Shown here: piece after piece, positions 3,917-58,014 of the stretch
Layout: each line of letters opens with the position of its first letter
Numbering within the stretch: position 1 is the stretch's first letter
Assembly: GCA_014155875.1 (NCBI GenBank)
Contig: JACEFZ010024489.1
Location: 541,501-605,500, forward strand
Length of the DNA stretch: 64,000 bases
Direction of reading: 5' to 3'
From: Cepaea nemoralis
Taxonomy: Eukaryota > Mollusca > Gastropoda > Stylommatophora > Helicidae
Made by a program: the position numbers and the translations under genes
The notes under the pieces: generated by a model
Database searches by the model: none
Told to the model about the DNA's origin: nothing
The model's input: only the letters and a program-made list of their open reading frames with translations

Positions 3917-6253
3917 GGGGAAGAGCATGGGCGGAGCTGTATGGGGTAGCTAAAGATAGCAGGGCATGGGCGGAGCTGTATGGGGTAGCTAAAGATAGGA
4001 GGGCATGGGCGGAACTGTATGAGGTAGGAAAAGATAGGAGGGCATGGACGGAACTGTATGGGGTAGCTAAAGATAGGAGGGTATGGGCAGAGCTGTATGG
4101 GGTAGCTAAAGATAGGAGGGCATGGACGGAGCTGTATGGGGTAGCTAAAGATAGGAGGGCATGGGCGGAACTGTATGAGGTAGCTAAAGATAGGAGGGCA
4201 TGGGCGGAACTGTATGAGGTAGCTAAAGATAGGAGGGCATGGACGGAGCTGTATGGGGTAGCTAAAGATAGGAGGGTATGGGCAGAGCTGTATGGGGTAG
4301 CTAAAGATAGGAGGGCATGGGCGGAGCTGTATGGGGTAGTTTAAGATAGGAGGGCATGGGCGGAACTGTATAGGGTAGCTAAAGATAGGAGGGCATTGGC
4401 GGAGCTGTATGGAGTAGCTACAGATAGGAGGGTATGGGCGGAGCTGTATGGGGTAGTTTAAGATAGGAGGGTATGGGCAGAGTTGTATGAGGTAGCTAAA
4501 GTTAGGAGGGTATGGGCTGAACTGTATGGGGTAGCTAAAGATAGGATGGCATGGGCGGAGCTGTATGGAGTAGCTAAAGATAGGAGGGTATGGGCGGAGC
4601 TGTATGGGGTAGTTTAAGATAGGAGGGTATGGGCGGAGCTGTATGGGGTAGCTAAAGATAGGAGGGTATGGGCGGAACTGTATGGGGTAGCTAAAGATAG
4701 GATGGCATGGGCGGAGCTGTATGGAGTAGCTAAAGATAGGAGAGCATGGGCGTAACTGTATGGGGTAGCTAAAGATAGGATGGCATGGGCGGAGCTGTAT
4801 GGAGTAGCTAAAGATAGGAGGGTATGGGCGGAGCTGTATGGGGTAGTTTAAGATAGGAGGGTATGGGCGGAGCTGTATGGGGCAGCTAAAGATAGGAGGG
4901 TATGGGCGGAACTGTATGGGGTAGCTAAAAATAGGATGGCATGAGCGGAGCTGTATGGAGTAGCTAAAGATAGGAGGGCATGGGCGGAGCTGTATGGAGT
5001 AGCTAAAGATAGGAGGGCATGGGCGGAGCTGTATGGGGTAGCTAAAGATAGGAGGGCATGGGCGGAGCTGTATAGGGTAGCTAAAGATAGAATGGCATGG
5101 GCGGAACTGTATGAGGTAGCTAAAGATAGGATGGCATGGGCGGAACTGTATGGGGTAGCTAAAGATAGGATGGCATGGGCGGAACTGTATGGGGTAGCTA
5201 AAGATAGGAGGGCATGGGCGGAGCTGTATGGGGTAGTTTAAGATAGGAGGGTATGGGCGGAGCTGTATGGGGTAGCTAAAGATAGGAGGGTATGGGCGGA
5301 AATGTATGGGGTAGTTTAAGATAGGAGGGTATGGGCAGAGTTGTATGGGGTAGCTAAAGATAGGAGGGTATGGGCGGAGCTGTATGGGGTAGCTAAAGAT
5401 AGGAGGGCATGGGCGAAGCTGTATGGAGTAGCTAAAGATAGGAGGGCATGGGCGGAACTATATGGGGTAGCTAAAGATAGGATGGCATGGGCGGAGCTGT
5501 ATGGAGTAGCTAAAGATAGGAGGGCATGGGCGGAGCTGTATGGGGTAGCTAAAGATAGGAGGGCATGGGCGGAGCTGTATAGGGTAACTAAAGATAGGAT
5601 GGCATGGGCGGAACTGTATGAGGTAGCTAAAGATAGGATGGCATGGGCGGAACTGTATGGGGTAGCTAAAGATAGGATGGCATGGGCGGAACTGTATGAG
5701 GTAGCTAAAGATAGGAGGGCATGGACGGAGCTGTATGGGGTAGCAAAAGATAGGATGGCATGGGCGGAACTGTATAGGGTGGCTAAAGATAGGATGGCTT
5801 GGACGGAACTGTATGGGGTAGCTAAAGATAGGAAGGCATGGGCGGAACTGTATGTGGTAGCTAAATATAGGATGGCATGGGCGGAGCTGTATAGGGTAGC
5901 TAAAGATAGGAGGGCATGGGCGGAGCTGTATAGGGTAGCTAAAGATAGGATGGCATGGGCGGAACTGTATGAGGTAGCTAAAGATAGGATGGCATGGGCG
6001 GAACTGTATGAGGTAGCTAAAGATAGGATGGCATGGGCGGAACTGTATGGGGTAGCTAAAGATAGGAGGGCATGGGCGGAGCTGTATGGGGTAGTTTAAG
6101 ATAGGAGGGTATGGGCGGAGCTGTATGGGGTAGCTAAAGATAGGAGGGTATGGGCGGAACTGTATGGGGTAGTTTAAGATAGGAGGGTATGGGCAGAGTT
6201 GTATGGGGTAGCTAAAGATAGGAGGGTATGGGCGGAGCTGTATGGGGTAGTGT
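3917..6253 (+). repeat. 39-bp minisatellite array 1 (about 60 units)
   Basis: Head-to-tail array of a 39-bp unit of the form GGGCATGGGCGGAGCTGTAT + GGGGTAGCTAAAGATAGGA. Because 39 is divisible by three, each frame repeats a 13-residue motif (AWAELYGVAKDRR in one frame; a proline-rich motif on the other strand), giving long open stretches by construction. Unit variants include GGAGCTG/GGAACTG, GGGGTAG/GAGGTAG/AGGGTAG, AGGAGGGC/AGGATGGC, and a TAGTTTAAG form that puts a TAA in the AELYGVAKDRR frame (near 4330, 4450, 4610, 4848, 5235, 5315, 6090 and 6170). The frequent stops and the lack of an anchoring start or splice pattern argue against a protein. Confidence 0.97.
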
Positions 6254-9510: not shown

Positions 9511-12347
9511 ACAGGTAGCTAAAGATAGGAGGGCATGGGCGGAGCTGTATGGAGTAGCTAAAGATAGGAGGGCATGGGCGGAACTATATGGGGTAGCTAA
9601 AGATAGGATGGCATGGGCGGAGCTGTATGGAGTAGCTAAAGATAGGAGGGCATGGGCGGAGCTGTATGGGGTAGCTAAAGATAGGAGGGCATGGGCGGAG
9701 CTGTATAGGGTAACTAAAGATAGGATGGCATGGGTGGAACTGTATGAGGTAGCTAAAGATAGGATGGCATGGGCGGAACTGTATGGGGTAGCTAAAGATA
9801 GGATGGCATGGGCGGAACTGTATGAGGTAGCTAAAGATAGGAGGGCATGGGCGGAGCTGTATGGGGTAGCAAAAGATAGGATGGCATGGGCGGAACTGTA
9901 TAGGGTGGCTAAAGATAGGATGGCTTGGACGGAACTGTATGGGGTAGCTAAAGATAGGATGGCATGGGCGGAACTGTATGGGGTAGCTAAAGATAGGATG
10001 GCATGGGCGGAGCTGTATAGGGTAGCTAAAGATAGGATGGCATGGGCGGAACTGTATGGGGTAGCTAAAGATAGGATGGCATGGGCGGAGCTGTATAGGG
10101 TGGCTAAAGATAGGAGGGCATGGGCGGAGCTGTATAGGGTAGCTAAAGATAGGATAGCATTGGCGGAACTGTATAGGGTAGCTAAAGATAGGATGGCATG
10201 GGCGGAGCTGTATAGGGTAGCTAAAGATAGGATGGCATGGGTGGAACTGTATGGGGTAGCTAAAGATAGGATGGCATGGGCGGAGCTGTATAGGGTAGCT
10301 AAAGATAGGATGGCATAGGCGAAACTGTATGGGGTAGCTAAAGATAGGATGGCATGGGCGGAACTGTATGGAGTAGCTAAAGGTAGGAGGGCATGGGCGG
10401 AACTGTATGTAGTAGCTAAAGATAGGAGGGCATGGGCGGAACTGTATGAGGTAGCTAAAGATATGAGGGCATTGGCGGAGCTGTATGGAGTAGCTAAAGA
10501 TAGGAGGGCATGGGTGGAGCTGTATGAGGTAGCTAAAGATAGGAGGGCATGGGCAGAACTGTATGGAGTAGCTAAGGATAGGATGGCATGGGCGGAACTG
10601 TATGGAGTAGCTAAAGATGGGATGGCATGGGCGGAACTGTATGGAGTAGCTAAAGATAGGAGGGCGTTTGCGGGGCTGTATGGAGTAGCTAAAGATAGGA
10701 GGGCATGGGCGGAACTGTATGGAGTAGCTAAAGATAGGAGGACATGGGTGGAACTGTATGAGGTAGCTAAAGATAGGAGGGCATGGGCAGAGCTGTATGG
10801 AGTAGCTAAAGATAGGATGGCATGGGCGGAGCTGTATGGAGTAGCTAAAGATAGGATGGCATGGGCGGAGCTGTATGGAGTAGCTAAAGATAGGTGGGCA
10901 TGGGTGGAGCTGTATGAAGTAGCTAAAGGTAGGAGGACATTGGCGGAACTGTATGGAGTAGCTAAAGATAGGAGGGCATGGGCAGAGTTGTATGAGGTAG
11001 CTTAAGATAGGAGGGCATGGGCGGAACTGTATGGAGTAGCTAAAGATAGGAGGGCATGGGTGGAACTGTATGAGGTAGCTAAAAATAGGAGGGCATGGGC
11101 AGAGCTGTGTGGAGTAGCTAAAGATAGGAGGGCATGGGTGGAGCTGTATGGAGTAGCTAAAGGTAGGAGGACATGGGCGGAACTGTGTGAGGTAGCTAAA
11201 GATAGGAGGGCATGGGCGGAGCTGTATGGAGTAGCTAAAGATAGGAGGGCATGGGCGGAACTGTATGAGGTAGCTAAAGATAGGAAGGCATTGGCGGAGC
11301 TGTATGGAGTAGCTAAAGATAGGAGGGCATGGGCGGAACTGTATGAGGTAGCTAAAAGATAGGAGGGCATGGGCGGAGCTGTATGGAGTAGCTAAAGATA
11401 GGAGGGCATGGTCGGAACTGTATGAGGTAGCTAAAGATAGGAGGGCATGGGTGGAGCTGTATGGAGTAGCTAAAGATAGGAGGGCATGGGCGGAACTGTA
11501 TGAGGTAGCTAAAGGTAGGAGGGCATGGGTTGAGCTGTATGGAGTAGCTAAAGATAGGAGGGCATGGGCGGAACTGTATGAGGTAGCTAAAGATAGGAAG
11601 GCATTGGCGGAGCTGTGTGGAGTAGCTAAAGATAGGAGGGCATGGGTGGAGCTGTATGAGGTAGCTAAAGATAGGAGGGCATGGGCGGAGCTGTATGGAG
11701 TAGCTAAAGATAGGAGGGCATGGGCGGAACTGTATGAGGTAGCTAAAGATAGGAGGGCATTGGCGGAGCTGTATGGAGTAGCTAAAGATAGGAGGGCATG
11801 GGCGGAACTGTATGAGGTAGCTAAAGATCGGAGGGCATGGGTGGAGCTGTATGGAGTAGCTAAAGATTGGAGGGCATGGGCGGAACTGTATGAGGTAGCT
11901 AAAGATAGGAGGGCATTGGCGGAGCTGTATGGAGTAGCTAAAGATAGGAGGGCATGGGTGGGGCTGTATGAGGTAGCTAAAGATAGGAGGGCATGGGCGG
12001 AGCTGTATGGAGTAGCTAAAGATAGGAGGGCATGGGCGGAACTGTATGAGGTAGCTAAAGATAGGAGGGCATTAGCGGAGCTGTATGGAGTAGCTAAAGA
12101 TAGGAGGGCATGGGCGGAACTGTATGAGGTAGCTAAAGATAGGAGGGCATGGGCTGAGCTGTATGGGGTAGCTAAAGATAGGATGGCATGGGCGGAGCTG
12201 TATAGGGTAGCTAAAGATAGGATGGCATGGGCAGAGCTGTATGGGGTAGCTAAAGATAGGAGGGTATGGGCGGAGCTGTATGGGGTCGCGAAAGATAGTA
12301 GGGCATGGGCGTAGCTGTATGAGGTAGCTAAGGATAGGAGGGTATGG
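9511..12347 (+). repeat. 39-bp minisatellite array 2 (about 73 units)
   Basis: Second array of the same 39-bp unit in the same orientation. It begins inside a unit (GGTAGCTAAAGAT after ACA). Its first 444 bp (9516-9959) match 5390-5833 of array 1 with only about three differences, including private variants such as AACTATATGGGG, GTAACTAAAG and GTAGCAAAAG. From about 11260 to 12150 the units form a higher-order pattern (see findings). Open reading here is an effect of the 39-bp period: the frame breaks at 10316, 11003 and 11361 and at the array end. Confidence 0.97.
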
Positions 12348-22775: not shown

Positions 22776-22780
22776 ATCGG

Positions 22781-23326
22781 TGTCACAGTCTCGGATCTCT
22801 AGGGGATCTGAACTCGGGCTCAAACAGGCAACAACAACTCCGTTAGATACAATATAGCAACATTTATTAATATGATATAAACAGTGCGCTGGCGAAGTGG
22901 GTTTTAACAGCCCTCACTTGACAAGTTGCATATCACAGAGGTTTAACATCACACATGATTATAACAAACAATTCTAAGCAACTATCTAGCATATGTCTAC
23001 GACCCTAAATACACATGGGTCTGAACTATCAAGTCCCTCTAAGGTAAGCCCTGTTGCTTCCCCGATGTCCAGTCTGTCTCTGCCGTTTCACACGTGTCGC
23101 AATCCGACACGGGTGGTAACTCTGTCCGAGTTCCTCGTGGACCCCGCAATCGGCGGGCCACATCAGTGTCCACGGGACAGTGGACACACTGACCAGTCCT
23201 TCGAGAAGGCTCTGGATTCTTCAGGCCTTCGAGTGACTCACTTCTTTCCCTTGAGCGGGAGTTTTAGCCCTTTGCCACTATATCTTACTTTATGTTAGTT
23301 ACCGGCCCCCATGTGAGGCTGTGACA
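22781..23326 (-). repeat. LTR (3' LTR in element sense)
   Basis: 546 bp, TG...CA ended. By eye about ten differences from the other LTR, including TGTCCACGGG versus TGTCCAAAGG, so about 98% identical. A small ORF over it appears in both LTRs and is only a by-product of their duplication. Confidence 0.95.
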
Positions 23327-23347
23327 GGAGTCCCCCCTCTCCCCCCT
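23327..23347 (-). other. Polypurine tract
   Basis: The minus strand reads AGGGGGGAGAGGGGGGACTC and then C, directly before the LTR start TGTCACAG. This is the expected primer site for plus-strand DNA synthesis and fixes the element's direction. Confidence 0.85.
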
Positions 23348-23496
23348 GATCTGATGGGTTATATAAGGTAATTAGTTCTGTACTAATTCTGTCACAGAAT
23401 CACATACAGTCCGTGTTTGTAGTTTGGTGGATAGTACCTTGGCAACCTACATATCGGCATCAACACTCATGTATTCTCCCATACACCACTTCACGA

Positions 23497-24213
23497 TGTT
23501 TGAGCCCGAGTTCAGATCCCCTAGAGATCCGAGACTGTGACAGGCTATTTGGGGGCTAAGCTCCGGTTTTGGCACAAGCTTTACGTTTAGTCAGCTCTTA
23601 GTTGCCAAGTAAAAAAATTAATGAATTAATATCAAGTTTAATACAGAACAAGTTTAATAACTTTGCAGCCATCTAGTAATAAACTAGTATTAGTCCCTCT
23701 TCAGGTACATTTCAAATGATGTTAGTATTATGAAATTTGACATGACTGTGACATTTACGTGACTGTTACTAATTTTTTTTTTGATTCTACTAGCAGATTG
23801 TTCCGCGAATTGTGGTGTATGTAACCTTTCCTCCAACAGTGCCGAGAGAACAAGACTACATTCGCAAGTTCAGGGAAAATAAGATGAGTTTCATATCATG
23901 CCCATTGCAACCCTAAGCGGTAACTTACCATCATCCATCCATGTAACATTGTTGCTTTGCATTGATTTGTATGTATATTCATAACCTCATAAACCAACAA
24001 AACTTTTCATGTGTATTTGCTCATGTAAACATTAAGGGAGATAACTAAATTTTTCTACTCCCCAACTTTTTCTAAGGGATTTAATTTTCAGCAAAATTAA
24101 CAACAAGTAAAAGACAAGATGTCAACGTTAGAAAATGTATTGAGTTAGGTATTAGATTAGGTTATAAGAGGAGAAACTGTCAGAATGGGACAGAAGACGC
24201 ACTCAGAAAACAT
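23497..24213 (+). repeat. Left inverted arm: LTR end, leader and gag start
   Basis: 717 bp. It comprises the last 46 bp of the LTR in plus sense (23497-23542), a leader with a possible primer binding site TGGGGGCTAAGC at 23550, and the first codons of gag at 24185. Its reverse complement forms 27179-27893 at roughly 96-97% identity by eye, with small indels such as T-run length and one extra base in the gag start of the right arm. Confidence 0.92.
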
Positions 24214-25452
24214 CGCCCGAGAAGAAAGAGCGACAGAACGGGAAGAGATAAAGATGCGATCAGAAAGAGAAGAGAAAAAGATGCAAATGCAAATTGAGGC
24301 AGAAGAGAAAAAGATGCAATCAGAGAGAGAAGAAAAGAAAATGCAAATTGAGGCAGAAGAGAAAAAGATGCAATCAGAGAGAGAAGAAAAGAAGATGCAA
24401 ATGGAGGCAGAAGAGAAAAAGATACAAATGCAATTGCAGGCTCAAGAGAAACAAATGGAGCTTGAGGCCGCTGCCACACACGCCCAATTAATGCAGATAC
24501 ACAGATAAGACTAAAACAAATGGAAATTGATTCCAACGTAGAAATGTCAGTAAATAAAATGAGAAGTAAGGAAGAGGAACAAAAATACAACAAATATAAA
24601 GGCCTCGTTAAAGCATTCTGTGCAGGAGATTCTATCAGCGCATACCTGGAAAACTTTGAGTGTTTAATGTCCTACCATAAGGTCGCAAAAGTCGATTGGT
24701 CATTTATTTTGATGAGAAATTTAGCTCTTGAACCCTTAAAAGTAATAGAGACAGTTCCACAAGATATGAGAAAAGATTATGATTATTTAAAGCAAAGAAT
24801 ACTCCAACATTTCTCACTAGATACAGCAGGCTATCAACAACAGTTCGCAAAATTATCCCCACAACCTAACCAAACTTTCATAGACTACGTGTCTACAGTT
24901 CAGGACGTTTGTACAAAGTGGATAAACTCAGCTAAAACTAATAACAACCACGACAAACTGAAAGAACTCATTATAATTGACAAAATTGTTAGTACAATCC
25001 CAACACCTTTTTCTAAATTTTTGAAACAAATGGATTGTAAAACTATTCAAGAAGTAGAGACCAAGGGGAGCGCATTTTTTACAGCGAACCGCGATATTTT
25101 CCAGTTAAACATGAGTCAAAACGAAACAGCAGCAGTTACAAACACTAGATACTCAAAACCAACTGAAAATAAGTTTAAACAACGTTCGAAGTTCACGAAA
25201 CGAGTTAAGTGCCAGTATTGTCATCTGACACACGAAGAGTACGCGATGTGTGACAAATCACCAAATTATCCACATCATCTCCAAATGATAGTGGAGAAAC
25301 AAAAGAACAAGAGAAATGCGTATCAGAGAGCGGTCAAATGCTATTTTTGTTCCAGCTTTGGACACTATTCACGATTTTGTGAAGGGCGAAAGATAATGAA
25401 GCAGGCCAATGCCGCACTAATTGACACTTCCTCAGATGAAGACATTGAATAA
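24185..25452 (+). pseudogene. gag: gag polyprotein (coiled coil, capsid-like domain, zinc knuckle)
   Basis: Structural protein of the retrotransposon. It packages element RNA. Residues 1-100 (24185-24508) are a charged coiled coil of E/K/M/Q-rich repeats (EREEKKMQ). A one-base frameshift near 24505 shifts the reading to 24520-25452, which has a capsid-like segment (FECLMSYHKVAKVDWSFILM, then FSLDTAGYQQQFAKLSPQPN) and two cysteine clusters. The second, CYFCSSFGHYSRFC, is a canonical CX2CX4HX4C zinc knuckle; the first is atypical. The ORF ends in TAA at 25450-25452, in frame with the downstream pol ORF. The frameshift makes this copy defective; whether the TAA is a lesion or a natural gag/pol boundary is open. 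Confidence 0.85.
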
Positions 25453-25482
25453 CTGAACGAATGTGACAATCAGAATGAAAGT

Positions 25483-26922
25483 TTGAGTGAGCTAGGGAAT
25501 GCAGTGCAAATCATTGACACCATTACAGAAAACAAATGTAACACCTGTAGAAAATTCCAACTTGATACAACATTGCTATGCGGCCACACAATCCCTATTT
25601 CTAACGAAATGGCCAACGCAGCCTTATCATCATCAGGCAAATTAAATTTCTCAACAGGTTTTGTAAATAACAAAAAGTGCACATTAATACGCGATTCCGG
25701 CGCACCTCTGTGTGGAATTAAGAAAACATTGGTTAACGACAAAGACTACACACACAAATACGTAACTTGTCGCACATTCGCAGGCACCATCGAAAGATAC
25801 CCCCTAGCACTTGTCGAAATTCGCACACCGTTTATATCAGGACTAGTATTGTGCGCAGTACTAGAAAATCCTGTCGCTGAGATTATCCTTGGGAATCTCC
25901 CCAACATAAGATCTTGCTCTGAGGAGGAAATCAGAGATTGGGAGCAGAAAAACTGTATCCAGAACCCAAACAGCGATTCTAAAGACCATACGTGCTTGTC
26001 TCAAACTGCCAAAAGTACAAGGGAGACAACCAATGACGGAATTCAAAATGAATTCACCGAGGTGCATAATGCAGGGGCGGTTGAATCTGTCAGTGATACC
26101 ACCAATTTAAATCCTCGAACTGAGGATGCCATCGATCCACAAATTACCAAGCCTGTAAATGTGCAACAACACACACAACACACTAATGCAATAACACGAC
26201 AGACAACACACAAAACCCACACCGACCAACTTCAGGAATCACTAGAAATCATATCACCAAACACTACCATCACTAATTTTGGAGAAGAACAGAAAGCAGA
26301 TCCTACACTTTCACAATATTTTAGGTTAGTAGGACTTAAGCCAAAATTGACTAAAAATGTGTCGTGGACATTTAGATTAAAGAACAATGTTCTGACTAGA
26401 TTATATACCAGAGATCAGACCACGATACAGCAAGTAGTTCTACCTCAATCACATCGTGAGAAAGTACTAAATATAGCCCATGACTCACCTTTCGGAGGTC
26501 ATATGGATTACGAAAAGACTAGAGCCAGAGTCCTGACCCAATTTTATTGGCCTAAATTTTGCCAAGACATAAAAACCTATTGCAGATCATGTGATACATG
26601 TCAGAAACTGGTTAAAAAGGGAAAAAACCCTATGGCAGAAATTCAATCAACCACAACTGCCTCGAGGCCATTTCAAATCGTGGCAGTTGATTTAGTAGGT
26701 CCGTTAAACCACATCTCAAACAAAGGGAATAGATATATTTTTACGCTTATTGATCTATGTTCGAGATGGCCAGAAATGATTCCATTAAAATCTATCTCCT
26801 CTAAGGATGTGACGGACGTATTGTTACAGATATTCTCCCGTTTTGGCTTTCCGGAGAAGATAATTTCAGATAGGGGAACACAGTTCATATCTAATGCCAC
26901 CCAATCGGTAACTAGTTACTAG
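25483..26922 (+). pseudogene. pol: pol: protease and integrase, directly adjacent, no reverse transcriptase between them
   Basis: In the same frame as gag after one stop. An aspartic protease signature DSGA lies near residue 70 (IRDSGAPLCG), with a second hydrophobic strand ending in IILGNLP. After a linker of about 130 residues comes the integrase: an HHCC-type zinc domain (HDSPFGGHMDYEKTRARVL ... CRSCDTCQK) and catalytic aspartates in VAVDLVGPL and IISDRGTQF. The frame ends at 26922 because of a single missing base; the integrase continues in another frame (27003-27188). In this lineage (compare Gmr1-like elements) integrase precedes reverse transcriptase, so the absence of RT upstream is natural; the RT that should follow is lost at the inversion junction. 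Confidence 0.85.
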
Positions 26923-27002
26923 GCATAAAACAATGTTTCACCAGTCCCTATCGACCGGCCGCGAATGGAATCTGCGAAAAACTAAATGGGGACCTGAAAC
27001 AT

Positions 27003-27188
27003 ATGTTATCCAAAGTGACAGCTGAAAATCCAGCCGATTGGGATATACTTCTCCCAACGGTGCTGTTCGCATATAGAGAAGTCCCACAATCAAGCACAGG
27101 GTTCTCTCCGTTCGAATTGATATATGGAGCGAACCCAAGAGGACCTCTCACTATTTACAAAGATATAATATCACAACCTGTTTTCTGA
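27003..27188 (+). pseudogene. Integrase C-terminal continuation, cut at the inversion junction
   Basis: Out of frame with the preceding ORF, this has the integrase end of the core: DILLPTVLFAYREVPQSSTG and FSPFELIYGANPRGPL, typical of gypsy integrases. It runs into the right inverted arm at about 27179 and stops four residues later. The region containing the catalytic glutamate lies between 26922 and 27003. Confidence 0.85.
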
Positions 27189-27893
27189 GTGCGTCTTCTG
27201 TGCCCATTCTGACAGTTTCTCCTCTTTATAACCTAATCTAATACCTAACTCAATACATTTTTCTAACGTTGACATCTTGTCTTTTACTTGTTGTTAATTT
27301 TACTGAAAATTAAATCCCTTAGAAAAAAGTTGGGGAGTAGAAAATTTAGTTATCTCCCTTAATGTTTACATGAGCAAATACACATGAAAAGTTTTGTTGG
27401 TTATGAGGTTATGAATATACATACAAATCAATGCAAAACAAAAATGTTACATGGATGGATGATGGTAAGTATCGCTTAGGGTTGCAATGGGCATGATATG
27501 AAACTCATCTTATTTTCCCTGAACTTGCGAATGTAGTCTTGTTCTCTCGCCACTGTTGGAGGATAGGTTACATACACCACAATTCGCGGAACAATCTGCT
27601 AGTAGAATCAAAAACAAATTAGTAACAGTCACGTAAATGTCACAGTCATGTCAAATTTCATAATACTAACATCATTTGAAATGTAACTGAAGAGGGACTA
27701 ATACTAGTTTATTACTAGATAGCTGCAAAGTTATTAAACTTGTTCTGTATTAAACTTGATATCGTTTAATTAATTTTTTACTTGGCAACCAAGAGCTGTC
27801 TGAACGTAAAGCTTGTGCCAAAACCGGAGCCTAGCCCCCAAATAGCCTGTCACAGTCTCGGATCTCTAGGGGATCTGAACTCGGGCTCAAACA
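27179..27893 (-). repeat. Right inverted arm: gag start, leader and LTR end
   Basis: 715 bp, the reverse complement of 23497-24213. In minus sense the LTR ends at 27848, the leader follows, gag starts at 27207 and is cut after about ten codons at the junction. One extra base in the gag start puts even that stub out of frame. Confidence 0.92.
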
Positions 27894-28392
27894 GGCAACA
27901 ACAACTCCGTTAGATACAATATAGCAACATTTATTAATATGATATATACAGTGCGCTGGCGAAGTGGGTTTTGACAGCCCGCACTTGACAAGTTGCATAT
28001 CACAGAGGTTTAACAGCACACATGATTATAACAAACAATTCTAAGCAACTATCTAGCATATGTCTACGACCCTAAATACACATGGGTCTGAACTATCAAG
28101 TCCCTCTAAGGTAAGCCCTGTTGCTTCCCCGATGTCCAGTCTGTCTCTGCCGTTTCACACGTGTCGCAATCCGACACGGGTGGTAACTCTGTCCGAGTTC
28201 CTCGTGGACCCCGCAATCGGCGGGCCACATCAGTGTCCAAAGGACAGTGGACACACTGACCAGTCCTTCGAGAAGGCTCTGGATTCTTCAATCCTTCGAG
28301 TGACTCACTTCTTTCCCTTGAGCGGGAATTTTAGCCCTTTGCCGCTATATCTTACTTTATGTTAGTTACCGGCCCCATGTGAGGCTGTGACA
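27848..28392 (-). repeat. LTR (5' LTR in element sense)
   Basis: 545 bp, TG...CA ended and followed by the TSD ATCGG. Read on the minus strand it is followed by a leader with TTTGGGGGCT, the expected location of a primer binding site. Confidence 0.95.
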
Positions 28393-28439
28393 ATCGGGTC
28401 TACCCGAAAGAAAAGACCTATATCTACTCGCTCTATATA

Positions 28440-45878: not shown

Positions 45879-46626
45879 ATGGCCACTCCTAGATTAACTA
45901 CGGTAGAACTAAGGGCAAAGGGGGAAGAAATGGGTTTGACGGGTTCTGGCCTAACAGATTATGTACAGGAAGTGGAGAGGGAGTTTCGTCAAGCAGAAAG
46001 GGAAGATCGCAAGGCCGAGCTTTAATTGAGAAGGATGGAGTTAGAACAAGCTGCTAAGGAATTGGAAGCAGAGCAAGCCATGAAAAGGCTGGAAATTGAA
46101 GCTGAGCAGGCAGCTAAGAAATTTGAAGCTGAGCAGGCAGCTAGGAAACTTGAAGTTGAGGAAGCTGCTAGGAAACGGGAAGCGGAGCAAGAAGCTCAGA
46201 AAAGGGAGCACGAGTACCGGATGAGGGAACTAGAGTTGAAGAGGCAATCTAATAGGGAAACTGAGGGAGCAGTTGGAGGTTCCTCCATCCCAGGCTCAAC
46301 ACCAGTAGGTGGACATAGTTACCATGCTATGAAGTTTCCTCTAGTGGTCTATGATCAGGGCAAAGAGAAGATTGACCAGTACCTTCAACGCTTCGAGGCC
46401 ATGTCCGTTGCTATGGGTCTGGACCGTGACAAATGGTGTCTTAAGCTATCCCAGAGATTGCTTGGAACCGGTTACGAGGTCTATTCCTCGCCTGCCGCCA
46501 GGACATGAGAACAATTACGACGAATTGAAAGCTGCTTTGCTGAAACATTACGAGATCACATCAAGTACATATAGGAAGAAGTTTCGAGCAGCGAAACGAG
46601 AGCCAGGAGAGCTATTCGCCGCCTAA
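45879..46626 (+). pseudogene. gag: gag, N-terminal coiled coil and capsid start
   Basis: The likely start is ATG 45879 (MATPRLTTVELRAKGEEMGL), followed by an in-frame TAA at 46023. The same frame then continues to 46508 as a long E/A/K coiled coil (repeats such as EAEQAARKLEVEEAARKREA) and the capsid start (MKFPLVVYDQGKEKIDQYLQ, then RFEAMSVAMGLDRDKW). A one-base slip near 46490 moves the capsid (HENNYDELKAALLKHYEITS) to another frame, which hits TAA at 46624-46626. gag is therefore broken three times. Confidence 0.85.
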
Positions 46627-46629
46627 AGT

Positions 46630-48609
46630 TTGCGCCTGAAATCCTACCTCCAAAAATGGATGGATTTGGCAGGGTTCAAGCATGACTATGAGAGTCTGGA
46701 AGAGCTCATGATTGTCGACCAGATGCGACAGCAAATGTCAGAACCTCTGAAGACATTCTTGGGAGAACAAGGGGCGGAACGGCTTGATATGGTGAATAAG
46801 CTGGCGGAAAGATTCGTTGAAGTCCATGGGGAGGCGGAAGAAACCTGTACACCAACCACCAAAGGTCAGGAGAAACATGACCGAAAGAAATTCAAAGGCT
46901 CAGAAACAAAGAAAGTGGAACCTTATGCAAACACTTCAGAGAAGAGTCCAGAGAAGACAAAGGATGGGAGACAGAGCCCACCCAACTCTCAACCGAAACG
47001 ACAGTGGTCTGAGAAGTGGTGTTCGATCTGCAAGTCGCCCTCTCACAACACAAAAGACTGCAAATCGAAAACGAAAAGCTCTCACTTCGCAGCCTGCCGC
47101 GTGGCTCCAAAGGTGGTTGCCACCGAAAAGGTCGAGGTTGTTGAAGGAACTCTGGACCAAGAGAGGCCACCTGTGGTCGAACTGATTGAAGTCAACGGCC
47201 AGCAGGTTACCTGTCTCTATGATTCTGGTTTGGACGGGGAAGCTGTGATTGATGCCAGCTTGGTACGCCCAGACCAACTCACAGGGGAGACTATTGAGAT
47301 ACAGCCTGCAATGAGGAGTGCTGTTGCCATGACACTGCCAATCGCCAAGGTGGAGATTAAATCCAGGTACGTCACAGGCATCATTCCAGCGGCTGTGTTA
47401 TCTGATTCCCTATTTGCCGTGATCCTTGGTACGAAATACGTGTTCTTGGGGATGCCCAAACAACCCGCTCACATGGGAACATCAGCCACTGGATCCCAAA
47501 TGAAGGAAAAAGGGGCAGAGACAAGATGCAACAACCCAATGCAACGGGAACTGCATACTGCCCAGAGGAAGGACACTACGTTGAGTCCTTGTTACAAGAA
47601 GCTGCAAAAAAGTGCTGACCCATCAGAACGGGGGCAGTACTTTCTGAGGAATCGACTGCTCTATCGGAGAGCCGGAAGGGGAGACAAACTGCATGAGCAG
47701 TTGGTGGTTCCAGAAGCCCACCGTCCGCACATTCTTCAGAGCGGGCACACCATATCCGGAAGTCAGACATCCGAGAATCGACATATGGGTGTCAGGAGAA
47801 CGTTGCAGCAGATTTCCTGCCATTATTGCTGGCCAGGAATGACCGGAGATGTACGCCGGTTGGTGAAGTCTTGTCCAGAGTGCCAGAAGGCACCACCCAA
47901 AAATCGGACAAAGAGTAAAGGAGCTCTTAAGGTGGGAGAGAAAGTAGTAGTGTGGGGACCAGCAGAGACCAACATGCTGCAAGTAGGATGGCATGGACCT
48001 TATCCTGTGGTAAAGGTTGTGTCCAGGAACACCTACGAAATCCGGATTGGGGGAGAACTGAAAAGTCTTCCTAGGCATCTCCTGCAGAAATATGAGGAGA
48101 GATCCGAGGTAAAATCCTCTCACCTTATGGTAATGGCAGCCATTGGGGAAAAGGTTACAGGTCCAGACGGAGACCAGAGATCCCAAGTACTACATAGGAA
48201 GGCCTATGGGAACGTACGAGGTAGGTCAGATTTTCCAGCCGAAGAGAGGAAGGAAATCACACGTCAGGAAGAGGCCCATAGTGAACCATTCGCTAGTAAC
48301 CCAGTTCAGAAGGGGTGGGTAACGTCGGGAACGGCGCGAAATATCCGAGACTCCAACCAAGGATTAGCTGACCACATCCAACATCGACCGAGATGGTCCT
48401 GGAAGCAAAAATCCATGAGCTTTGGGGAAGACGATTCTGTCCAACGAGGACGATACCGCAAATCCCAGGATGCAAACCTTGAGGAAACTAAGCGGATATG
48501 GAGACACTGCTACAGTCAGGATGGAACGATCCGTCTGTATTGTGAGCCGTCGCTTACGCAAGTCGGAAGTTGGCCGACTGAACGTACAGGCGCGATACGC
48601 CAACACTAG
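46630..48609 (+). CDS. pol: Deleted gag-pol: capsid end, zinc knuckle, protease, integrase zinc domain and C-terminal domain
   Basis: 659 codons, open. The listed start is simply the first ATG-like codon after the gag stop. Residues 1-70 are the capsid end (LEELMIVDQMRQQMSEPLKT). A zinc knuckle CSICKSPSHNTKDC (CX2CX4HX4C) is near residue 132. A protease-like segment carries DSGLDGEAVI near 198, with a short LG strand (VILGTKYVFL). The integrase zinc domain follows, ending CPECQKAPP near 420, and joins in frame to the integrase C-terminal domain (GWHGPYPVVKVV ... PRHLLQKYEE). The DDE core between these is deleted, and RT, expected after it, is absent. The last 170 residues are unfamiliar and may be read through shifted RT/3' sequence. 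The copy cannot catalyse integration. Confidence 0.82.
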   Translation: MRLKSYLQKWMDLAGFKHDYESLEELMIVDQMRQQMSEPLKTFLGEQGAERLDMVNKLAERFVEVHGEAEETCTPTTKGQEKHDRKKFKGSETKKVEPYANTSEKSPEKTKDGRQSPPNSQPKRQWSEKWCSICKSPSHNTKDCKSKTKSSHFAACRVAPKVVATEKVEVVEGTLDQERPPVVELIEVNGQQVTCLYDSGLDGEAVIDASLVRPDQLTGETIEIQPAMRSAVAMTLPIAKVEIKSRYVTGIIPAAVLSDSLFAVILGTKYVFLGMPKQPAHMGTSATGSQMKEKGAETRCNNPMQRELHTAQRKDTTLSPCYKKLQKSADPSERGQYFLRNRLLYRRAGRGDKLHEQLVVPEAHRPHILQSGHTISGSQTSENRHMGVRRTLQQISCHYCWPGMTGDVRRLVKSCPECQKAPPKNRTKSKGALKVGEKVVVWGPAETNMLQVGWHGPYPVVKVVSRNTYEIRIGGELKSLPRHLLQKYEERSEVKSSHLMVMAAIGEKVTGPDGDQRSQVLHRKAYGNVRGRSDFPAEERKEITRQEEAHSEPFASNPVQKGWVTSGTARNIRDSNQGLADHIQHRPRWSWKQKSMSFGEDDSVQRGRYRKSQDANLEETKRIWRHCYSQDGTIRLYCEPSLTQVGSWPTERTGAIRQH

Positions 48610-55427: not shown

Positions 55428-57725
55428 TTAATGGTCATATTCTCTATTTGTATGTGGCCAGAGCTTTTTAGCCATTCCGTCTCTTGAAATTACCATATAT
55501 TCTGTCTTATCTTGGTTGATAACCAGCCCCATCTGTTGGGCTTTTTCCTTTAAGTGAGTCAATATTTCCAATGTCTTTTGTTCACTTTGCCCTATAATAT
55601 CTATATCATCTGCATAACCAAGCAGCTTGGATGTTCCACCAATATCACATTCCTCCTTTACCTTCCTTACAACTTTCTCTAGAGCCAGATTGAAGAGTAG
55701 CGGCGATAGTGCATCACCCTGTTTCAAGCCAGATGTTATTTGGAAGGGGTCTGATTTCCTGCCTTTATATGTTACTATATTATAAGTATCTTCCATGCAT
55801 AGTCTGGTCATGTTGATTAACTTCCTTGGTATTCCAAATTCCTGCATAGCATTCCATAGACTATTCCTATGGACACTATCATAAGCCTTTTTAAAATCCA
55901 CAAAAATGTTATGGAGATCTCTTTTATATTCCCAATGTTTCTCGGCTATTTGTCGTAAGATAAATATCTGATCTATTGTTGATCTGTTTTGTCTAACACC
56001 CGCCTGGTAGTCACCTAATATGTCTTCTGAATATGGTTTTAGTCTATTTAGTAATACTGCGGATAGTATCTTATAGCTTGTGGGCAGTAGTGATATTCCT
56101 CTATAATTTCCACATTGGAACGTGTCTCCTTTCTTAAAGATAGGTATCAATAATGACTCTTTCCAGTCATGGGGTAATTCTTCTGTCCTCCAGATTTTTA
56201 TTATTAGTTCGTATAGCTTTAGATGTAATGCATGGCCACCTGCCTTTATAAATTCAGCAGCAATTCCATCAGTCCCAGTTGCCTTATTGTTTTTAAGTCG
56301 TGTGATTACATATAGGATTTCTTGAAATGTAGGTTCTTCAATTTGTGGTTCGCATGTTAGAACCTCTTCCTGTGGGAAAATGTTACTTGGAGCTTCACAA
56401 TTTAGTAATTCAATAAAATATTCTTTCCATGTGTTGCACATTTCCTCATTGGTATTTATCATATTCCCATTTTTGTCTTTTAAACCATATGTGTTTTGTT
56501 GGTGCCCTCGTTTCATTGACTTCACATCTTTAACAAATTTTCTGGATTCATTTTTATGGTGATTAGTTTCCATATCTTTGATTATATTACTCATATATTC
56601 TCGCTTCTGCTGTCTGACTATTTTTGTAGCCTCTTTACATTCATTTCTATAATGCTCTTCCTTTTGGATGTTATTGATGTCATTTAACCATACATGTCTG
56701 GCATTCTTCTTCCTAATGACTGCTTCTTCACATTTTTGATTGAACCATCTGTTCTTTCTATGCGTGGTTAACACACCGAGACATTCTTCTGCGGTAGATT
56801 GAATTGTATTCTTGATGTTCAACCAAGTTTGGTCAACGCTTTCCTCCAAAGGGTTTTGCAGAGTTTCAAGTTTACATCTTATTTCATCTGTAAATTTCTC
56901 TTCGACTGTAATGACTTGTAGTTTTTCTCTGTTATATGTTGGGTGTAATCTTTGTAATTTAGTATAGAAACCTCTCTTAAGTTTTATTTTAAATTTTGCT
57001 CCAAAGAGGAAGTGGTCACTGTGGCACTCAGCTCCTCTATAACTTCTGACTTGCTGTATGTTTGATGCATTTCTGTTGTTAATTAAAATGTGATCTATTT
57101 GATTATAGGTTCTCTTGTCACATGATTTCCAAGTTTGTTTGTGTATATCCTTTCTTTGTAGTCTGGTACTGCTAATCTGCAGTCCTTTGGCTTCTGCCAG
57201 GTTGATGACTCTCCATCCATTATCATTTGAAGTTGTATGTAGGCTTTCCATACCGGCCACTTTTTTATTAGTTTGCTCTCTACCTATTTTTGCATTGAAG
57301 TCTCCCAGCACAATCAGGATGTCCTGTTTGGGGGTTTCTTCTATGACATCTTCCAGATCATTATAAAAGTCTTCTTTAATATCATCTTCTTTCTCTTCAG
57401 TAGGTGCTTGTACATTAATCATCGTTATATTTTTCCATTTACCTTTTATTCGTAATTTACTAATCCTGTCATTAAAAGCTTTAAAGTTTAAAACGTTCCC
57501 CCATAACTCTTTTTTGATGACAAATCCTGTTCCTAATTCATGTTTATTTTGGGTGTTTCCTCCATATATTATAATCATTCCATTTTGCTCTAAAGTACCC
57601 TCTCCTGGCCACCTTATTTCTTGAATTGCTGTTATATCCATTTGATATTCAACCAGCTCCCGGGTTAGTTCTTCGGCCGCTCCAGCTCGATATAGTGTCC
57701 ATACATTCCATGTTCCAAATCTCAA
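55428..57725 (-). CDS. LINE ORF: AP endonuclease and reverse transcriptase (765 codons)
   Basis: Endonuclease (residues 1-240): begins MRFGTWNVWTLYRAGAAEEL; metal-binding glutamate in TAIQEIRWPGEG, LIVLGDFNAKIG, and SDHFLFGAK as the catalytic His motif. Linker with FNQKCEEAVIRKKNARHVW. RT (about 440-740): YRGISLLPTSYKILSAVLL, motif A FVDFKKAYDSVHR, GLKQGDALSPLLFN and motif C LGYADDIDIIG. It would nick the target and prime cDNA from it in the nucleus. The ORF leaves its proper frame near 55465 (last residues PHTNREYDH are out of frame), so the thumb and C-terminal part are lost. Similar proteins are often named 'craniofacial development protein 2-like' in databases. The start ATG is the first of the ORF and gives a complete first strand of the endonuclease. 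Confidence 0.9.
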   Translation of the reverse strand: MRFGTWNVWTLYRAGAAEELTRELVEYQMDITAIQEIRWPGEGTLEQNGMIIIYGGNTQNKHELGTGFVIKKELWGNVLNFKAFNDRISKLRIKGKWKNITMINVQAPTEEKEDDIKEDFYNDLEDVIEETPKQDILIVLGDFNAKIGREQTNKKVAGMESLHTTSNDNGWRVINLAEAKGLQISSTRLQRKDIHKQTWKSCDKRTYNQIDHILINNRNASNIQQVRSYRGAECHSDHFLFGAKFKIKLKRGFYTKLQRLHPTYNREKLQVITVEEKFTDEIRCKLETLQNPLEESVDQTWLNIKNTIQSTAEECLGVLTTHRKNRWFNQKCEEAVIRKKNARHVWLNDINNIQKEEHYRNECKEATKIVRQQKREYMSNIIKDMETNHHKNESRKFVKDVKSMKRGHQQNTYGLKDKNGNMINTNEEMCNTWKEYFIELLNCEAPSNIFPQEEVLTCEPQIEEPTFQEILYVITRLKNNKATGTDGIAAEFIKAGGHALHLKLYELIIKIWRTEELPHDWKESLLIPIFKKGDTFQCGNYRGISLLPTSYKILSAVLLNRLKPYSEDILGDYQAGVRQNRSTIDQIFILRQIAEKHWEYKRDLHNIFVDFKKAYDSVHRNSLWNAMQEFGIPRKLINMTRLCMEDTYNIVTYKGRKSDPFQITSGLKQGDALSPLLFNLALEKVVRKVKEECDIGGTSKLLGYADDIDIIGQSEQKTLEILTHLKEKAQQMGLVINQDKTEYMVISRDGMAKKLWPHTNREYDH

Positions 57726-58014
57726 AAGTCCTTTAACGTTCCAAGGTCGTTGTCCAGATAAGTCAGTCGGATATCGAGGCTCATGTATCTGTTTCGTAAC
57801 AAAGAAAGGTTTTTACAAAGGTGGGGATGTTAACCCCACGCTTCAACCCCCAACCTGGAGGACCAGGGTGTTTCTCTTTGTCTGTTCTCTACCCTTTGAC
57901 CTGTCCGGCTTGGGAGGCCCTGCTGGTAGCTACGCTACCGCCGGCATAGCTCTCAGGGTCATTGAGAAACTCAAGCTCCCCCACCACGACAAGGTGGAAA
58001 CACCATCGGGGGAG

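What the first reader, a model, noticed from the sequence alone, without database searches (positions are those of the whole stretch)
22781..28392. LTR retrotransposon insertion whose interior is a giant inverted repeat
Seen directly: direct LTRs and an exact TSD (ATCGG) mark one integration event, and the purine tract fixes the LTR direction as minus. The gag-protease-integrase segment runs the other way, flanked by inverted arms of about 716 bp that each contain LTR end, leader and gag start. Since the arms contain LTR sequence, the inner segment derives from a second copy in opposite sense. Inference: the rearrangement occurred before integration (during reverse transcription in the particle, or by auto-integration), because it is enclosed by intact LTRs and TSD. 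The transcript would fold into a 0.7-kb double-stranded stem, a possible small-RNA source.
Basis: partly seen in the sequence, partly recalled or inferred. Interest (0 to 1): 0.75.

Follow-up and report, generated by a model that had tools for sequence, protein, structure and literature searches.

The report
Retrotransposon copy with inverted interior
One copy of a jumping element in an animal genome carries, between its two normal ends, the front half of a second, slightly different copy inserted backwards, most likely through a copying accident just before it landed in the chromosome.

Summary
Window 22781-28392 is one LTR retrotransposon insertion on the minus strand (546/545-bp LTRs, exact 5-bp TSD ATCGG). 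Its interior is replaced by a 3.7-kb plus-sense segment (last 46 nt of U5, PBS, leader, gag, protease-like region, part of INT), so two ~716-bp arms face each other; RT and RNase H are missing. It belongs to an abundant Gmr1-like Ty3/gypsy family, with INT upstream of RT in the one relative read through that point. Junction 1 has a single match in the 3.47-Gb assembly, against 172 for the ordinary sequence there; the junction 2 search did not complete. The junctions carry 2 and 3 bp of microhomology. Neither lies at an LTR terminus, so autointegration is rejected. Five of 17 arm substitutions are family polymorphisms (0.12 expected), so the arms come from two source copies. Private substitutions are equally dense in the inverted part and its frame (13/1873, 12/1746). 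Best reading: intermolecular strand switching during reverse transcription, then integration. It is a defective copy of a known kind; small-RNA output is untested.

The parts
22776..22780 (.). target-site duplication ATCGG, left
   Evidence: sequence; 8 of 8 other family pairs examined have 5-bp TSDs
22781..23326 (-). 3' LTR
   Evidence: 546 bp, TG...CA; 10 substitutions and 1 gap against the right LTR
23327..23496 (-). polypurine tract (next to the LTR) and last ~170 nt of the ordinary 3' noncoding region
   Evidence: matches the same place in relatives at 94.7-97.1%; stops in all three frames of the minus strand
23497..23498 (.). junction 1: 3' noncoding region joined to inverted U5, TG shared by both sides
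   Evidence: comparison with 13 ordinary tails; 1 match in the assembly against 172 ordinary matches
23497..24212 (+). left inverted arm: last 46 nt of U5, PBS, leader, gag start
24185..25452 (+). gag (two frames) with a SCAN-like stretch
   Evidence: ORFs; Pfam SCAN E 1.3e-5, 25.3 bits, cut-off 27; zinc knuckle only at E 1.3
25453..26922 (+). protease-like region and integrase (H2C2 and core)
   Evidence: ORF; Pfam Integrase_H2C2 1.4e-19, rve 2.6e-14; no Pfam protease hit, protease by recalled motif only
26925..27178 (+). further integrase core in another frame, cut before the C-terminal part
   Evidence: Pfam rve_3 E 0.0051, 17 bits, cut-off 26.5; continuation in relative L019
27179..27181 (.). 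junction 2: INT joined to inverted gag start, TGT shared by both sides
   Evidence: comparison with L019 INT and with the left arm
27179..27893 (-). right inverted arm: gag start, leader, PBS and last 46 nt of the 5' LTR
27848..28392 (-). 5' LTR
   Evidence: 545 bp
28393..28397 (.). target-site duplication ATCGG, right
   Evidence: sequence

Best explanation
A pre-integration accident of reverse transcription between two co-packaged genomes of one Gmr1-like LTR retrotransposon family. Shown: one LTR/TSD frame on the minus strand encloses a plus-sense U5-to-INT segment from a different source copy, joined at 2-3 bp microhomologies. Inferred sequence of events: plus-strand DNA of genome 1 was extended through LTR, PBS, leader and gag start. 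At TGT it switched to the sense strand of genome 2 inside INT and copied that back through PR, gag, leader and PBS to within U5. At TG it switched again to the 3' noncoding region of a minus strand and finished through the polypurine tract and LTR. The resulting DNA had two complete ends and was integrated normally with a 5-bp TSD. Joining two partial cDNAs by microhomology in the particle or nucleus before integration gives the same product and cannot be told apart here. The copy is defective, lacking RT and RNase H; its transcript could fold into a ~0.7-kb stem, which is untested.
For: Intact LTRs and exact TSD. Neither junction is at an LTR terminus; microhomology TG and TGT. Of 17 arm substitutions, 5 are at sites where both states occur in at least 3 of 29 other copies, expected 0.12, 0 of 20,000 simulations reach it. 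At the six differing sites of the first 90 nt, the right arm's states are found together in 2 of 29 copies (L066, L078); of the left arm's rare states, T45 and A57 occur together in 2 of 29 (L057, L068). So the inner segment was not simply copied from its own frame. Private substitution density is equal inside and outside (13/1873 and 12/1746, Fisher p 1.0), so both have decayed for about the same time. Arm and LTR divergence do not differ (p 0.56). Junction 1 has 1 match in the assembly, the ordinary sequence at that place 172. At least one relative bears a plain reverse-transcription accident: about 65 nt of antisense tRNA-Pro at the primer site of L041; C23717 shows 16-18 nt of the same, then a jump.
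Against: Haplotype differences lie only in the first ~90 nt of the arms, apart from one weak site (column 297, left state seen in one other copy). None of 29 copies has the left arm's full set of states. At column 193 both arms share a state seen in none of the 29, which points to partly shared ancestry or later conversion between the arms. Private substitutions are uneven between the LTRs (1 left, 6 right). The plus-strand route is a reconstruction. Microhomology of 2-3 bp is also typical of end joining. Private one-base indels crowd on the left side (left arm 5, left LTR 1, right arm 0, right LTR 0), so that side may be poorly polished. Junction 2 was not searched in the genome.
Confidence: 0.65

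Rival explanations
1. Post-integration repair: an ordinary copy was inserted here, later broke inside, and the gap was filled with a partial cDNA, or by template switching to another copy, in inverted orientation by microhomology-mediated joining.
For: LTRs and TSD would stay intact. Microhomologies of 2-3 bp. The two arms come from different source haplotypes, as a captured foreign cDNA would show.
Against: The inner segment has as many private substitutions per base as its frame, so it is unlikely to be much younger than the insertion. Copying purely from its own locus is not compatible with the arm haplotypes.
Confidence: 0.22
2. Assembly artefact: a chimeric read or misjoin between family members.
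For: High-copy family (3104 first-look LTR candidates, 40 scored). No reads were examined. Left-side indels suggest weak polishing.
Against: The outer flanks share an exact TSD. The arms differ by 17 substitutions, so they are not one molecule read twice. The joins are at 2-3 bp, not at long overlaps, and there are two of them.
Confidence: 0.1
3. Autointegration: an LTR end attacked the element's own DNA and inverted part of it.
For: Autointegration is a known dead end of retroelements (PMC2644782, start of abstract in the listing).
Against: The reverse-transcript ends would have to be at the junctions; both junctions lie elsewhere: 46 nt inside U5 / 3' noncoding region, and INT / gag start. 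The arms come from two source copies.
Confidence: 0.01
4. The inverted form is itself a transposing non-autonomous subfamily.
For: LTRs, PBS and PPT are present, so it could in principle be copied in trans.
Against: Junction 1 occurs once in the assembly at up to 3 mismatches. The junction 2 search did not complete.
Confidence: 0.02

Closest known systems
Gmr1 clade of Ty3/gypsy LTR retrotransposons (integrase usually upstream of RT; PMC8220671, passages read)
   Same: In relative L019 integrase is followed by RT. Gag has a SCAN-like stretch; the SCAN domain is derived from a Gmr1-like Gag (PMC3424704, passages read).
   Different: This copy lacks RT and RNase H and has an inverted interior; no RT tree was made.
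Defective retroviral proviruses with internal inversions (HTLV-1c: 1.9% of sequenced proviral genomes contained an inversion, 73.9% large deletions; 58 of 185 deletion breakpoints with 4-10 bp microhomology; PMC13427564, passages read)
   Same: Internal inversion between viral ends; microhomology at breaks is reported there for deletions.
   Different: Here an LTR retrotransposon in a genome assembly, with part of the sequence present twice so that 716-bp arms arise, and two source copies detectable. Microhomology here is 2-3 bp.
Mu killer of maize (inverted duplication of a transposon, proposed hairpin RNA that silences the family; PMC3440606, start of abstract in the listing)
   Same: An inverted copy of a transposon whose transcript would fold back.
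   Different: Mu killer derives from a DNA transposon and is reported to silence MuDR/Mu lines; here no expression or small-RNA data were seen.
Autointegration products (PMC2644782, start of abstract in the listing)
   Same: A pre-integration accident of the reverse transcript.
   Different: [quoted passage not shown] neither junction here is at an end.

Membership tests
LTR retrotransposon insertion | direct LTRs with TG...CA ends, flanking TSD of family length | tested here: met
LTR retrotransposon insertion | polypurine tract and primer binding site next to the LTRs | tested here: met
   purine tract on the minus strand at 23327 on; primer site only an 8-nt match TGGGGGCT to the tRNA-Pro 3' end, inferred from the read-through copies; the name tRNA-Pro is recalled
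Gmr1 clade of Ty3/gypsy | integrase upstream of reverse transcriptase | tested here: met
   in one relative, L019: INT C-terminal domains, then RVT_1 1.6e-13; the window copy itself ends inside INT
Gmr1 clade of Ty3/gypsy | SCAN-like Gag | tested here: inconclusive
   E 1.3e-5 but 25.3 bits against a cut-off of 27
Gmr1 clade of Ty3/gypsy | RT/INT phylogeny | not tested
   no tree built; the best of 26 protein hits is named Candidula unifasciata
Autointegration product | junction at an LTR terminus | tested here: not met
Transposing inverted subfamily | several copies with the same junctions | tested here: not met
   junction 1: 1 match, window only; junction 2 not answered
Hairpin silencing locus (as Mu killer) | double-stranded transcript and small RNAs | not testable with these tools
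   no RNA data held

The most novel reading that the evidence does not exclude
The inverted copy is transcribed from its own minus-strand LTR, folds into a ~0.7-kb near-perfect stem of U5, primer site, leader and gag start, and supplies small RNAs against the still-young family, as Mu killer does for MuDR: a retrotransposon that made its own hairpin silencer through a reverse-transcription accident.
Probability: 0.06. Interest if true: 0.75.

Novelty: new variant of a known kind. Interest (0 to 1): 0.36.

Why it matters
It looks like a single-event example of a defective LTR-retrotransposon copy formed from two parental copies in opposite sense, in which parental haplotypes can still be partly read. 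It shows how an inverted-repeat transposon can arise with intact ends. Together with relatives that captured tRNA-Pro sequence at the primer site, it makes the error spectrum of strand transfer in a Gmr1-like element testable from genome sequence alone.

Tried and rejected
Simple inversion within one element: rejected because the U5-leader-gag start is present twice. Foldback or template switching on the same locus alone: rejected by arm haplotypes. Autointegration: rejected by junction positions. Idea that arms are older than LTRs: the separate repeat blocks (mostly 90-97%) suggested it, but the global alignment gives no difference (p 0.56). Idea that the 46-nt U5 breakpoint is the RNA 5' end: not adopted, since an AATAAA ends 36 nt upstream of it and no transcript data exist. 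LTR differences as evidence for two LTR sources: inconclusive (7 of 10 private, 1 left and 6 right; 3 at sites where the left state is also seen in 1-3 other copies). A first reading that L077 shares the left arm's A57 (notebook) was wrong: one search shows T there. Nothing found: Rfam on the window at gathering scores, ARAGORN on the window and on L041, PDB relatives of the second gag frame up to E 0.1, phage collection with the left LTR. Literature searches (16 of 16 listed; 20 of 55; 20 of 140; 2 of 2; 10 of 782; 12 of 74): in the titles and abstract starts shown I saw no report of this kind of LTR-retrotransposon copy; the lists were mostly capped, so that is not proof of absence.

Full report
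What is there. The element spans 22781-28392 on the minus strand. Its LTRs are 546 and 545 bp and differ by 10 substitutions and one gap. The flanks carry ATCGG on both sides. Eight of eight other family pairs examined have exact 5-bp duplications, and the seven pairs whose LTRs were compared differ by 0-3 substitutions in 545; they come from the best matches of the left LTR, so they are biased. A polypurine tract on the minus strand adjoins the left LTR, so the left LTR is the 3' one.

Interior. Reading the plus strand from the left: 170 nt of the ordinary 3' noncoding region, then a plus-sense segment made of the last 46 nt of the LTR, primer site, leader, gag, a protease-like region and integrase, cut inside integrase. 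After that come the inverted gag start, leader, primer site and 5' LTR. The arms 23497-24212 and 27179-27893 align over 720 columns with 17 substitutions and 9 gap columns. Gag has a SCAN-like stretch below the Pfam cut-off, and integrase is clear; the protease is named from a recalled motif only, with no Pfam hit. In relative L019, the one read through this point, the sequence continues through the integrase C-terminus into reverse transcriptase, the Gmr1 order (PMC8220671, passages).

Junctions. Comparison with 13 ordinary tails and with L019 gives junction 1 as CACGA/TG/TTTGAG and junction 2 as ACAACC/TGT/TTTCTG, with TG and TGT shared by both sides. Neither is at an LTR terminus, so integrase-made autointegration is out. 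Junction 1 as a 30-nt pattern with up to 3 mismatches has one match in 3.47 Gb, the window. The ordinary sequence at the same place has 172 (75 forward, 97 reverse). Junction 2 was asked in 21 calls and never answered.

Family context. The LTR search scored 40 of 3104 first-look candidates and the arm search 40 of 2567, so all comparisons use the copies nearest to the window's sequence. In 28 of 28 other arm loci held with flanks, the arm adjoins an LTR (about 540 nt or more matched) in ordinary orientation. Of 11 copies fetched for the leader-to-INT part, 7 cover all of the window's inner segment and 4 do not.

Two sources. With 29 other arm copies (28 plus L031), the 17 arm substitutions comprise 6 private to the left, 4 private to the right, and 7 at which both states are seen in other copies. 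Five of those seven have both states in at least 3 copies. Random mutation would give 0.12 such sites; 0 of 20,000 simulations reached five. Alignment columns 524-537, where a pair of one-base indels shifts the alignment, were left out. The right arm's states at the six differing sites of the first 90 nt are found together in L066 and L078; T45 and A57 of the left arm occur together in L057 and L068, and no copy has the left arm's full set. Against this, column 193 carries a state found in both arms and in no other copy, and the informative sites lie almost only in the first 90 nt.

Timing. Substitutions private to this copy are 13 of 1873 inside (left arm plus gag-PR 280-1500, 25 copies) and 12 of 1746 outside (right arm 5, left LTR 1, right LTR 6), Fisher p 1.0. 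The column-193 state is counted once in each arm. Three rows (L073, L075, L081), columns 524-537, the gag repeat and the tail were left out; the tail adds 3 private substitutions and a gap, mismatches at its cut edge not counted. With only 7 copies the part 1500-2966 gives 9 of 1466. The inverted part has therefore been decaying about as long as the frame. This, rather than intact LTRs and TSD, supports an event close to integration.

Mechanism. Other copies show that this family suffers reverse-transcription accidents. In L041 (contig C10348) the primer site runs on into about 65 nt of antisense tRNA before jumping to leader position 401; Rfam tRNA scores 24.2 bits, E 0.072, below the gathering score of 29; that it is tRNA-Pro is recalled. 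C23717 has 16-18 nt of the same sequence and then jumps to the 3' region. C9632 has only 3-4 nt of it beyond the ordinary primer site, which is weak. The window copy has the ordinary primer site in both arms. I therefore favour two microhomology switches between two genomes during DNA synthesis, followed by normal integration, at 0.65. Capture of a foreign cDNA at a break soon after integration remains possible (0.22), and no reads were seen (artefact 0.10).

Doubts. One-base indels private to this copy crowd on the left: left arm 5 plus the pair in the skipped columns, left LTR 1, tail gap 1, against none in the right arm and right LTR. That looks like weak polishing on the side that holds junction 1.

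Known or new. Inversions are known among defective proviruses: 1.9% in HTLV-1c, with 4-10 bp microhomology at 58 of 185 deletion breakpoints (PMC13427564, passages). A hairpin role has a functional parallel in Mu killer (PMC3440606, start of abstract in a listing) but is untested here.

Noticed in passing
L041 (G000:C10348:343300-347026), first ~75 nt after the 5' LTR on its minus strand: About 65 nt of antisense tRNA (tRNA-Pro by recall) sit at the primer site, followed by a jump to leader position 401: read-through of the tRNA primer during plus-strand synthesis. C23717 (16-18 nt) shows a shorter version, C9632 at most 3-4 nt beyond the ordinary site.
   Followed up: partly
window 22781-24212: Private one-base indels crowd in the left LTR, tail and left arm and are absent from the right arm and right LTR, perhaps a poorly polished stretch.
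   Followed up: partly
window 23543-24212 and 27179-27847, alignment column 193: Both arms carry a G found in none of 29 other copies, although they differ in haplotype nearer the primer site; later conversion between the arms is possible.
   Followed up: no
window 46026-48609 (+): Remains of another element with gag, protease-like region and integrase zinc-binding region in the same order (by eye from the translation); not compared further.
   Followed up: no
window 3925-6250 and 9514-12347: Two long arrays of the same 39-bp tandem repeat, open in several frames on both strands.
   Followed up: no
G000:C10856:252097, 262088, 272059: Three same-strand matches to the ordinary 3' region about 10 kb apart, perhaps a tandem array of the element.
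   Followed up: no
window 55428-57812 (-): Long open frame that looks like an endonuclease and reverse transcriptase of a non-LTR retrotransposon (by eye from the translation).
   Followed up: no
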